Positions 3,081 to 5,153 of a stretch of 7,045 nucleotides of DNA are shown here, piece by piece (the stretch's first letter is position 1; each line of letters opens with the position of its first letter). The translations under genes and the position numbers were made by a program. Below the pieces are notes generated by a model. That model saw only the letters and a list, made by a program, of their open reading frames with translations, did not search any database and had not been told where the DNA came from. The DNA is from Actinomycetes bacterium (lineage in GTDB: Bacteria; Actinomycetota; Acidimicrobiia; Acidimicrobiales; Bog-793), in the NCBI GenBank assembly GCA_021785095.1, contig JAJYGM010000526.1, positions 1 through 7,045 of the forward strand, written 5' to 3'.

Positions 3081-4232
3081 TCAGGAGAGGCCCGCCCGCC
3101 GGAGCTTTCCCGACGCCGTGCGCGGCAGGCGGTCGGTGAGCACCAGCTCCTTGGGCGCGGCCCAGGGCGGCAGCGTCGCCCGCACCGCCTCGACGAGGGA
3201 GACGAGCTGGGGCGGAGCCGAGGGGTCGGCGGGGACGACCCACGCGACCACCCGCTCGCCCCACTCGGGGTCCGGCCGCCTCCACACCGCGACGTCGGCG
3301 ACGGAGGCGAGGGCGGCGATCGCCTGCTCGACGGGGACCGGCCACACCTTCTCGCCGCCGGTGGTGATCACCTCTGTGAGCCGGCCGTCGACGACGAGGC
3401 GGCGGCCGGACAGCGCCCCCCCGTCGCCCGTCGGGAGCCACCCGCCGCGCCCGTCGGGGCCGGGCACCCTCGGGTCGGTCCCGTCGCGATAGGCGCGCAG
3501 CAGCATGGGGCCGCGGAGGAGGACCTCTCCGGCGCGGCCCTCCCCGGCACGCCCGGTTCCCACCGCCACGTCCACACCCTCGAGCGGGACGCCGTCGTAG
3601 ACGACGCCCGAGCCGGTCTCGGTCATGCCGTAGGTGGCGACGACGTTGGCGGGGAGCACGTGCGGTGGCGCCGCGCCGCCGAGCAGGATGCACGCGAAGA
3701 GCGCAGGGTCGACCCGGTCGAGCGCCGTCGCGACGAGCGACGTGTGCGTGACGTCGCCGCCCCGGGCGATGGACTCGACCACGTCGGCGTCGAAGCCCGG
3801 GAGCACGGTGCACGGGGTCCCGGTGACGAGCGAGCGCGTCAGCACCGACAGACCGCCGATGTGGGAGAGCGGGAGGCACGCGAGCCAGCGGTGCCTGGCG
3901 GGGTCGACGTCCAGGCGTGCGCTCGTCGCCCGCGCGCTCGCGTCGATCGCGTCGTGCGTGAGCACGACCCCGCGCGGCATGCCGGTCGACCCGCTGGTCG
4001 CGACCACGACGGCGTCCCCCTCTTCGACCGGGATGCCGCCCTCGAGGGTGACGACGTCGCCGTCGGGAGCGACCACCTTCGTCGGCGCGAGCGCGCGGAG
4101 GAGCGCGCGCGCGGCGGCAGGTGGAAGCCGCCCATCGAGCGGCGCGACGGCGTCGCCGGCGTCCCAGGCCGCTCGCAACGCGTCCAGAAACCCGGGTCCA
4201 CCGGGGAGATCGATTGCGACGAGCTCCGGCAC
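3081..4232 (-). CDS. menE: o-Succinylbenzoate--CoA ligase (MenE), short actinobacterial form
   Basis: A 383-residue ANL-superfamily acyl-CoA synthetase that activates o-succinylbenzoate with ATP and CoA to OSB-CoA, the substrate of the ring-closing step made by MenB. Visible motifs: the ATP-binding loop TSGSTGMPRGV (79-89), LPLSHIGGL (120-128), YGMTETGSGVVYDGVPLEGV (201-220) typical of actinobacterial MenE, TGD (268-270), the hinge-region GRLTEVITTGGEKV (283-296), and PRTASGKLRR (370-379) with the adenylation lysine at 376. The N-terminal part is much shorter than in E. coli MenE, as in mycobacterial MenE, so this is not a truncation. The GTG at 4232 is the nearest in-frame start and lies 8 bases after a -10-like TAACCT. 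It diverges from menB across 21 bp and ends facing the SDR gene. Confidence 0.93.
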   Translation of the reverse strand: MPELVAIDLPGGPGFLDALRAAWDAGDAVAPLDGRLPPAAARALLRALAPTKVVAPDGDVVTLEGGIPVEEGDAVVVATSGSTGMPRGVVLTHDAIDASARATSARLDVDPARHRWLACLPLSHIGGLSVLTRSLVTGTPCTVLPGFDADVVESIARGGDVTHTSLVATALDRVDPALFACILLGGAAPPHVLPANVVATYGMTETGSGVVYDGVPLEGVDVAVGTGRAGEGRAGEVLLRGPMLLRAYRDGTDPRVPGPDGRGGWLPTGDGGALSGRRLVVDGRLTEVITTGGEKVWPVPVEQAIAALASVADVAVWRRPDPEWGERVVAWVVPADPSAPPQLVSLVEAVRATLPPWAAPKELVLTDRLPRTASGKLRRAGLS

Positions 4233-4239
4233 CTGCCGG

Positions 4240-4245
4240 TAGGTT
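4240..4245 (+). promoter_or_regulatory. Predicted -10 element of menB, overlapping the menE -10
   Basis: TAGGTT matches TANNNT and ends 8 bases before the menB ATG at 4254. The spacer AGAGGGCC has only a weak purine run, too close to the start to be a normal ribosome-binding site. It shares five of its six base pairs with the opposing menE element, and the pair is symmetric about position 4243. TTGCGA at 4214-4219 is a possible but badly spaced (20 bp) -35. Confidence 0.6.
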
Positions 4246-4246
4246 A
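4241..4246 (-). promoter_or_regulatory. Predicted -10 element of menE, overlapping the menB -10
   Basis: On the minus strand TAACCT matches TANNNT and ends 8 bases before the menE GTG at 4232. It is formed by the same TAGGTTA heptamer that gives the menB element on the other strand. No Shine-Dalgarno sequence and no convincing -35 are visible. Confidence 0.6.
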
Positions 4247-4253
4247 GAGGGCC

Positions 4254-5153
4254 ATGGACGCGGTGGACACGGTCGTCTCCGGCAGGCCCATCGACCCGCT
4301 CGACGGGCTGCGCGCGCTCCCGCTCCCGGAGTTCGAAGCGGCCGGCGAATGGCGGGACATCCGCTACGAGACGGCGGAAGGGATCGCGCGGATCACGATC
4401 TGCCGCCCCGAGGTGCGCAACGCCTTCCGGCCGCAGACCGTGTCGGAGCTGTCGAAGGCCTTCGAGCTGGCTCGCGACGACCCCGAGGTCGGCGTCGTGG
4501 TGCTGCGAGGCGAGGGGCCCGACGCGTTCTGCTCGGGCGGCGACCAGCGGATCCGCGGCGACGACGGCTACGTCGGCGACGACGAGCTGGCGCGTCGCGG
4601 CGTGGGCCGGCTGAACGTGCTCGACCTCCAGGTCCAGATCCGGCGGCTCCCGAAGCCTGTCCTCGCGAGCGTCGCCGGGTACGCGATCGGGGGCGGGCAC
4701 GTCCTCCACCTGGTGTGCGACCTCACGGTCGCGGCCGACAACGCGCGCTTCGGCCAGACGGGGCCGAAGGTCGGGAGCTTCGACGGCGGCTACGGCGCGG
4801 GCCTGCTCGCTCGCACGATCGGGCTGAAGCGGGCGAAGGAGGTCTGGTTCCTCTGCCGCCAGTACGGCGCGAAGGAGGCGCTCGACTGGGGTCTCGTGAA
4901 CGCGGTCGTCCCGCTCGCGGAGCTCGAGTCCGAGACCGCGGCGTGGTGCCGTCGGATGCTCGCGCTGAGCCCGATCGCGTTGCGCATGCTGAAGGCCGGC
5001 ATGAACGCTGCAGACGACGGTCTCGCGGGCGTCCAACAGCTCGCGGGGGACGCGACCATGCTGTTCTACATGACCGAGGAGGGGCAGGAGGGGCGCGACG
5101 CGTACGTCGGGCGACGAGCGCCCGACTTCTCGAGATTTCCCCGCCGTCCCTGA
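4254..5153 (+). CDS. menB: 1,4-Dihydroxy-2-naphthoyl-CoA synthase (MenB), bicarbonate-dependent type
   Basis: A 299-residue crotonase-fold enzyme that cyclises OSB-CoA to DHNA-CoA in the cytoplasm, normally as a hexamer. It shows the MenB oxyanion-hole signature CSGGDQ (93-98), AGYAIGGGH (141-149), the active-site segment GQTGPKVGSFDGGYG (167-181) with Ser175 and Asp177, the late tyrosine in FYMTEEGQEGRDAY (Tyr272), and the C-terminal PDFSRFPRRP tail. Glycine at 170, after Gln-Thr, matches E. coli-type (type I) MenB, which uses bound bicarbonate as the catalytic base; mycobacterial type II enzymes have Asp there. The first ~40 residues form a non-conserved lead-in. The ATG at 4254 follows a -10-like hexamer by 8 bases. 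menA follows after 18 bases, so the two are probably co-transcribed. Confidence 0.96.
   Translation: MDAVDTVVSGRPIDPLDGLRALPLPEFEAAGEWRDIRYETAEGIARITICRPEVRNAFRPQTVSELSKAFELARDDPEVGVVVLRGEGPDAFCSGGDQRIRGDDGYVGDDELARRGVGRLNVLDLQVQIRRLPKPVLASVAGYAIGGGHVLHLVCDLTVAADNARFGQTGPKVGSFDGGYGAGLLARTIGLKRAKEVWFLCRQYGAKEALDWGLVNAVVPLAELESETAAWCRRMLALSPIALRMLKAGMNAADDGLAGVQQLAGDATMLFYMTEEGQEGRDAYVGRRAPDFSRFPRRP

What the first reader, a model, noticed from the sequence alone, without database searches (positions are those of the whole stretch)
4232..4256. Symmetric bidirectional leaderless promoter shared by menE and menB
The two genes are separated by only 21 bp. One heptamer, TAGGTTA (4240-4246), gives a TANNNT hexamer on each strand: TAGGTT forward and TAACCT reverse. 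Each hexamer ends exactly 8 bases before its own start codon, so the arrangement is two-fold symmetric about position 4243. Neither side has a Shine-Dalgarno sequence. Divergent transcription from symmetric -10 elements is known in bacteria. Here it would be reduced to the minimum, with no 5' leaders, and would drive two consecutive pathway enzymes (OSB-CoA ligase and DHNA-CoA synthase). Because the hexamers share five base pairs, one polymerase should exclude the other, which could balance the two enzymes.
Basis: partly seen in the sequence, partly recalled or inferred. Interest (0 to 1): 0.75.

Follow-up and report, generated by a model that had tools for sequence, protein, structure and literature searches.

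The report
Two-way promoter shared by menE/menB
In an actinobacterium, one seven-base DNA signal between two menaquinone genes most likely starts transcription of both, in opposite directions and almost exactly at their start codons; the layout is kept in much of a bacterial family and recurs at a second gene pair, but no RNA data yet prove it.

Summary
In detail: TAGGTTA (4240-4246) lies centrally in a 21-bp gap, and TAGGTT/TAACCT each end 8 bases before menB ATG (4254) and menE GTG (4232). The reading (bidirectional, doubly leaderless promoter) is well supported by comparison, without RNA evidence. The exact 8/8 layout is in 11 of 13 genus genomes; the other two show no close menB. Of 62 divergent menE-menB loci sampled in the family, 29 (ten genera) share one heptamer with both starts close by, 20 keep it while menB has a leader, 13 have separate -10s. 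The heptamer's menB-only T is present in 20 of 20 leader loci and 0 of 13 separate ones. Leaderless -10s are general here: 5 of 6 TANNNT in the window precede gene starts by 7-8 nt. In six of ten spacing classes searched, one other pair recurred widely, FlK thioesterase/TldD. Both ingredients are known; I found no report of the combination. 'Balance by exclusion' is undemonstrated and weakened by E. coli data.

The parts
4240..4246 (.). TAGGTTA heptamer: shared bidirectional -10 element (TANNNTA)
   Evidence: conserved
4240..4245 (+). -10 hexamer TAGGTT for menB, 8 nt before ATG; preceded by CGG (a CGN extension, as reported for many M. tuberculosis promoters)
   Evidence: PMC3898074 passages
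4241..4246 (-). -10 hexamer TAACCT for menE, 8 nt before GTG
4233..4253 (.). 21-bp menE-menB intergenic gap, two-fold symmetric layout about 4243
4252..4254 (+). predicted menB transcription start (4252 from a canonical -7T, or 4254 if strictly leaderless)
   Evidence: inference from spacing; not mapped
4232..4234 (-). predicted menE transcription start (4234 canonical, or 4232 if strictly leaderless)
   Evidence: inference from spacing; not mapped
4254..5153 (+). menB, 1,4-dihydroxy-2-naphthoyl-CoA synthase
   Evidence: NCBIfam equivalogs NF005637 and TIGR01929 above cut-off
3081..4232 (-). menE-like o-succinylbenzoate-CoA ligase
   Evidence: best hits PRK07824/menE, below cut-off; aligned from residue 1 in most relatives
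5172..6098 (+). menA, 18 bp after menB; probably co-transcribed with it
   Evidence: NCBIfam equivalog above cut-off; co-transcription inferred

Best explanation
TAGGTTA is one symmetric -10 element read by housekeeping RNA polymerase in both directions. The rightward hexamer TAGGTT starts the menB(-menA) mRNA and the leftward hexamer TAACCT starts the menE mRNA. T6 and A2 of the heptamer each serve as -7T of one promoter and -11A of the other, the geometry described for E. coli bidirectional promoters. Starts fall within about 2 nt of each start codon, so both mRNAs are leaderless or nearly so and are translated without a Shine-Dalgarno sequence. The two polymerases cannot bind at once (inferred from geometry); whether this matters for the enzyme ratio is open.
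For: Exact CAY-N7-TANNNTA-N7-RTG occurs at menE-menB in 11 of 13 genus genomes; the other two have only distant menB relatives. Family sample: 81 loci examined (80 from the family), 63 with divergent menE (62 in the family); of those 62, 29 shared with both starts close, 20 heptamer plus menB leader, 13 separate. The core differs between genera (GGT, GCG, GCC) while T1 A2 T6 A7 stay (partly by selection, since the shared class is defined by the motif). A test that did not select on it: T1, needed only for menB, is T in 20 of 20 leader loci and in 0 of 13 loci where menB has its own -10. Genome-wide: TANNNT 6-9 nt before 89 of 763 called starts in G010 (0-4 at each other spacing up to 25) and 71 of 315 in G037 (0-4); such starts have weaker anti-SD pairing (median -2.8, n=89, vs -5.2, n=681). 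Heptamers flanked by two coding divergent starts in 0.94 Mb: 2 of 36 TANNNTA, 0 of 1299 sites of nine control heptamers. A second conserved case, FlK/TldD.
Against: No RNA 5' ends are available. The 8-nt spacing is at the long end; a strictly leaderless start needs an 8-nt discriminator, and the canonical start for menB (4252) is a C. No -35 was seen, by eye only. menB has SD-like pairing in this genus (-5.2 to -6.4 kcal/mol). Exact-pattern hits are not rare by chance: the pattern read backwards gave 16 sites in the 13 genomes, against 11 menE-menB plus 2 other true-pattern sites, so the weight lies in recurrence at one locus. Relatives are not independent; in the MenB tree the sampled leader loci of the family form one clade. 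Outside the family the heptamer stands beside menE in only 15 of 29 divergent loci.
Confidence: 0.85

Rival explanations
1. The heptamer is conserved because it is coding: menE starts further upstream and CTA ACC TAC encodes Leu-Thr-Tyr.
For: The menE frame is open upstream in the window and in several relatives; TAC CGG is often in the same frame (by eye).
Against: It would need a conserved CTA codon, 0.25% of 26852 Leu codons in G010. The menE spacing is 7, 8, 9 or 11, so the frame shifts in some loci while the heptamer stays. In L029 an in-frame stop lies 3 codons upstream.
Confidence: 0.04
2. Only one direction is a real promoter; the other gene is transcribed from inside its neighbour and uses a Shine-Dalgarno sequence.
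For: menB has predicted anti-SD pairing of -6.4 kcal/mol. The flank is asymmetric: CGG precedes the menB hexamer and no CGN precedes the menE one.
Against: The SD-like pairing is weak in TAGCGTA relatives while the layout stays. menE has TANNNT 5-9 nt before a start in 45 of 46 divergent loci (some at distant alternative starts) and in 26 of 29. T1 is kept or lost according to whether menB has another -10.
Confidence: 0.08
3. The heptamer is an operator for a regulator rather than a -10.
For: A short near-palindromic site lies between two pathway genes.
Against: The core is not palindromic and varies; the distance to start codons is tight; TANNNT precedes other genes genome-wide at the same spacing.
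Confidence: 0.03
4. Two ordinary leaderless promoters overlap because the gap shrank in a compact genome; the sharing has no function of its own.
For: Leaderless divergent pairs with separate -10s also occur (six of eight pairs in G010, offsets 11 to 206); in g6, g9 and g14 the menE and menB -10s are apart.
Against: Kept in ten genera with different cores. This rival concerns purpose, not mechanism; neutral retention of a forced overlap is not excluded.
Confidence: 0.4

Closest known systems
Bidirectional promoters with symmetric -10 elements (Warman, Grainger and co-workers; PMC12825309 abstract and sections 4, 14, 22 read; PMC10268837 passages; the 2021 Nat Microbiol paper is not held)
   Same: One -10 serves both strands; -7T and -11A pair reciprocally; often between divergent, functionally linked genes; TSSs commonly 18 bp apart.
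   Different: The word 'leaderless' occurs 0 times in the two papers held. Here the start codons themselves sit at the predicted start sites and the heptamer is a third of the whole intergenic region.
TA-led leaderless genes of Actinobacteria (Zheng 2011 PMC3160421, passages; Cortes 2013 PMC3898074, passages; Shell 2015 PMC4633059, passages)
   Same: TANNNT about 12 bp upstream of the start codon, ATG/GTG starts; 19.2% of genes on average in the Actinobacteria tabulated.
   Different: In the passages seen they are treated gene by gene; here one element serves two genes.
M. tuberculosis prpD/Rv1129c (Cortes 2013, figure legend passage)
   Same: Divergent neighbours, both reported as leaderless; the same legend calls closely juxtaposed divergent promoters common.
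   Different: A shared -10 is not stated in the passage I saw; the start-to-start distance was not checked.
M. tuberculosis lysG/lysE (PMC5648196, passages) and the EcoRV restriction-modification promoters (PMC5333194, passages)
   Same: Divergent genes with overlapping promoters; in EcoRV the two polymerase sites overlap and transcription is coupled.
   Different: 108-bp gap and a LysR-type regulator in lysG/lysE, where only a second lysE promoter is described as leaderless; the EcoRV C transcript is not leaderless.

Membership tests
Bidirectional promoter (symmetric -10) | Sequence symmetry in which -7T and -11A of the two strands coincide | tested here: met
   TANNNTA at 4240-4246
Bidirectional promoter (symmetric -10) | Mapped TSSs on opposite strands a short distance apart (18 bp commonest) | not testable with these tools
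   No RNA data; predicted distance 18-22 bp
Bidirectional promoter (symmetric -10) | Both directions conserved (stand-in for both directions used) | tested here: met
   T1 in 20/20 leader loci vs 0/13 loci with a separate menB -10; menE -10 in 45 of 46 loci and 26 of 29. Conservation only, not use
Bidirectional promoter (symmetric -10) | Steric exclusion of the second polymerase | not testable with these tools
   Inferred from overlap only
TA-led leaderless gene | TANNNT about 12 bp upstream of the start codon, above background in the genome | tested here: met
TA-led leaderless gene | No functional Shine-Dalgarno sequence | tested here: inconclusive
   menE met (-1.1 kcal/mol); menB -6.4 here but not conserved
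TA-led leaderless gene | mRNA 5' end at the start codon | not testable with these tools
   Needs TSS mapping

The most novel reading that the evidence does not exclude
A small, conserved class of minimal promoters in these actinobacteria: an 18-24 bp gap whose only evident signal is one TANNNTA heptamer drives two leaderless genes and is kept because mutual exclusion of polymerases fixes or quiets the ratio of the two products (MenE and MenB; FlK thioesterase and TldD).
Probability: 0.2. Interest if true: 0.8.

Novelty: new variant of a known kind. Interest (0 to 1): 0.6.

Why it matters
If confirmed, this is about the smallest divergent control region two genes can have: no leaders, no conserved Shine-Dalgarno sequences and no room for a separate promoter each. 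The family offers natural variants (shared, shared plus leader, separated) of the same gene pair, so the question of what polymerase exclusion at bidirectional promoters is good for becomes directly testable. It also gives a simple sequence rule (CAY-N5-8-TANNNTA-N5-8-RTG plus recurrence at one locus in relatives) for finding more cases.

Tried and rejected
Coding explanation for the conserved heptamer: rejected on codon use, frame shifts and a stop in L029. Conserved Shine-Dalgarno for menB: rejected because pairing is weak in TAGCGTA relatives (23 of 29 shared loci could be parsed, 6 were dropped: L008, L013, L029, L226, L227, L256). Gene calling for G037 with the high-GC seed gave 0 genes and was redone with long-ORF training. 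My simple gene finder missed menB in the window because it over-extended menE, so genome-wide counts are approximate. Divergent pairs of control hexamers in G010: 0, 0, 0 and 1 (AANNNT) against 8 for TANNNT. In one search locus L244 was mis-anchored and counted as 'separate'; one search shows it is shared, so I give 13 separate loci, not 14, and the printed Fisher value (7e-10) was computed with it among 14; relatedness makes that value too small anyway. L025 was called shared at menB spacing 12 and leader; I count it as leader. Census of spacing classes: (7,7), (6,6), (6,7), (5,6), (5,7), (5,5) were searched; (5,8), (6,8), (7,8), (8,8) were not. Hits other than the two gene pairs were mostly single; one string recurred in sister genomes G001 and G009, and two similar ones in G013 and G006; neither was followed. 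Rfam: 0 matches at gathering threshold in 9 sources. Covariation for the menB leader RNA is weak: 1 of 15 pairs with a two-sided change. A -35 element was looked for only by eye. Literature for the combination: nine searches; the listings showed no doubly leaderless shared -10, but most subscription papers are not held, and only passages were read of most papers opened.

Full report
OBSERVATION. Searches confirm every coordinate in the finding: a 21-bp gap (4233-4253), TAGGTTA at 4240-4246, and hexamers TAGGTT (+) and TAACCT (-), each ending 8 bases before its start codon (ATG 4254, GTG 4232). The window is 74.8% G+C and holds only 6 TANNNT on both strands; 5 of them lie 7-8 nt before the starts of 5 of the 7 genes (DsbH-like/DUF255 protein, SDR, menE, menB, menH). 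The exceptions are menA, 18 bp behind menB, and menD. TANNNTA occurs once, against a first-order Markov expectation of 0.26.

GENOME CONTEXT. The window's genome is not held; the nearest is G001. The best named relatives include MAGs labelled Acidimicrobiaceae and Microthrix and the isolate Acidithrix ferrooxidans, so the source is probably an Acidimicrobiia-like actinobacterium (inference). In 0.94 Mb of congener G010, TANNNT stands 6-9 nt before 89 of 763 called starts (31, 22, 28 and 8 at spacings 6, 7, 8 and 9), with 0-4 at each other spacing from 0 to 25. In G037 of the same family (55% G+C) it is 71 of 315. Starts so marked have weaker anti-SD pairing (median -2.8, n=89, against -5.2, n=681). 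This is the TA-led leaderless pattern described for Actinobacteria (PMC3160421 passages).

CONSERVATION. A pattern search for exactly CAY-N7-TANNNTA-N7-RTG found the menE-menB site in 11 of 13 genus genomes and two other sites (G005:C37, G008:C103); the remaining two genomes (58% and 70% complete) have only distant menB relatives. The pattern read backwards gave 16 sites in the 13 genomes, so single hits mean little; recurrence at one locus is the point. I then examined 81 loci: 80 from the family, chosen by genus from 155 menB-bearing of 172 genomes, plus L030 of another family. In 18 there was no divergent menE beside menB (17 of genus g9, one of g18). Of 62 divergent family loci, 29 from ten genera (g1 11, g2 1, g5 3, g7 4, g10 5, g11, g13, g16, g17, g19 1 each) share one heptamer with both starts close by (menE spacing 7-11, menB 6-9). 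Twenty (g3 2, g4 5, g15 11, g21 2) keep the heptamer beside menE while menB has a leader. Thirteen (g6 5, g9 6, g14 2) have separate -10s, 13-290 bp apart. Heptamer cores of the shared class differ (GGT, GCG, GCC). In a midpoint-rooted MenB tree of 50 rows, one main branch of the family is all shared, the other begins with shared loci, and the eight leader rows of the family form one clade (98/91).

THE INFORMATIVE BASE. Heptamer position 1 is needed for the menB hexamer but not for the menE hexamer. In loci sorted without looking at that base, it is T in 20 of 20 leader loci, where menB has no other -10 close to its start, and T in 0 of 13 loci where menB has its own -10 elsewhere (with L244 corrected as told under Tried and rejected). 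These loci are related, so the contrast rests on few independent events. It is nevertheless what a two-way promoter predicts.

BEYOND THE FAMILY. In one search, 49 further loci were scanned and 29 have a divergent menE. In 15 of the 29 a TANNNTA heptamer forms the menE -10: L274, L275, L277, L278, L056, L062, L073 and eight loci (L060, L063-L066, L068-L070) of which L068 and L069 are labelled Planktophila and Nanopelagicus. In the eight it stands 9 nt before an inferred menE start; the one such junction printed in full (L063) shows an AGGAGG-type Shine-Dalgarno before menB. In the other 14 it does not (L053-L055, L057-L059, L061, L071, L072, L074, L075, L078, L088, L276; L054 has a heptamer before menB instead). 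Twenty loci had no divergent menE, among them 15 with more distant MenB-like proteins (43-61% identity).

A SECOND CASE. Scanning G010 for heptamers between two coding divergent starts gave 2 of 36 TANNNTA and 0 of 1299 sites of nine control heptamers. The second lies between a FlK-type thioesterase (PF22636) and a TldD/PmbA peptidase (Pfam match shown for the G001 copy): TACGATA, 19-bp gap, spacing 7/7. Of 30 loci examined (44 of 61 genomes had a match; 30 were laid out), the heptamer is present in 27 (TACGATA in 24, TACCATA in 3), each time with a thioesterase start in frame 6-7 nt away. A TldD-side start 6-8 nt away is present in 12 of 13 genus loci (in 11 of these the printed peptide shows the TldD N-terminus; L295 was not resolved) and, with the TldD frame visible, in 7 of 17 others. 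The heptamer is absent in L303, L352 and L354. In g3, g4, g20 and g21 the TldD gene has no usable close start but the heptamer stays; g3, g4 and g21 are genera in which menB has a leader too. Six of ten possible spacing classes were searched across the genus; only these two gene pairs recurred widely.

MECHANISM. Shown: the sequence geometry, its conservation and the genome-wide leaderless signal. Inferred: RNA polymerase uses it in both directions. In the canonical geometry the starts would be 4252 and 4234, 18 bp apart, the commonest distance in E. coli (PMC12825309, section 4). Leaderless translation in mycobacteria works best with the codon at +1 (PMC4633059 passages), which would put the starts at 4254 and 4232. 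The CGG before the menB hexamer fits the CGN extension frequent in M. tuberculosis promoters (PMC3898074 passages); the menE side lacks it, so menB may be the stronger direction (inference). Mutual exclusion follows from overlap, but a role in balancing the enzymes is undemonstrated: in five E. coli bidirectional promoters, lowering one direction had little effect on the other (PMC12825309, section 14), while strong activation of one direction can repress the other (abstract).

VERDICT. A real and conserved feature; a new variant joining two known things. I found no report of the combination in nine searches of the held library, which lacks most subscription papers.

Noticed in passing
L148:3414-3438; L294-L306; L340-L356: A second conserved heptamer promoter (TACGATA) between a FlK-type thioesterase and a TldD/PmbA peptidase, with starts close by on both sides in 19 of 30 loci examined (TldD frame not resolved in one of them, L295).
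   Followed up: yes
L230:2425-2488 and 16 similar leaders (L017, L020, L022, L026, L229, L236-L243, L253, L255, L272): In genera with a menB leader, about 45 nt after the heptamer are strongly conserved; in several g15 members they are predicted to fold into a hairpin that pairs over the menB start codon, with an AGGAG inside. No Rfam match among 9 sources and weak covariation.
   Followed up: partly
L344, L345, L349, L350, L353 against L017, L020, L022, L025, L027: In genera g3, g4 and g21 both menB and TldD lack a usable start close to the heptamer while the heptamer stays, as if the lineage shifted from leaderless to leadered starts.
   Followed up: no
window 2188-2232: The divergent DsbH-like (DUF255)/SDR pair also has a TANNNT 7-8 nt before each start, but as separate -10s (TACCAT at 2200 on -, TAGCGT at 2219 on +).
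   Followed up: no
window 6884-6900: menH and menD starts are only 5 bp apart (gap 6887-6891); menH's -10 (6900-6895) lies inside the start of menD, and menD has no TANNNT of its own.
   Followed up: no
L063, L076, L077: MAG records labelled Bifidobacterium breve, Nitrosomonadales or Chromatiales carry MenB 71% identical to this one; the labels may be binning or naming errors.
   Followed up: no
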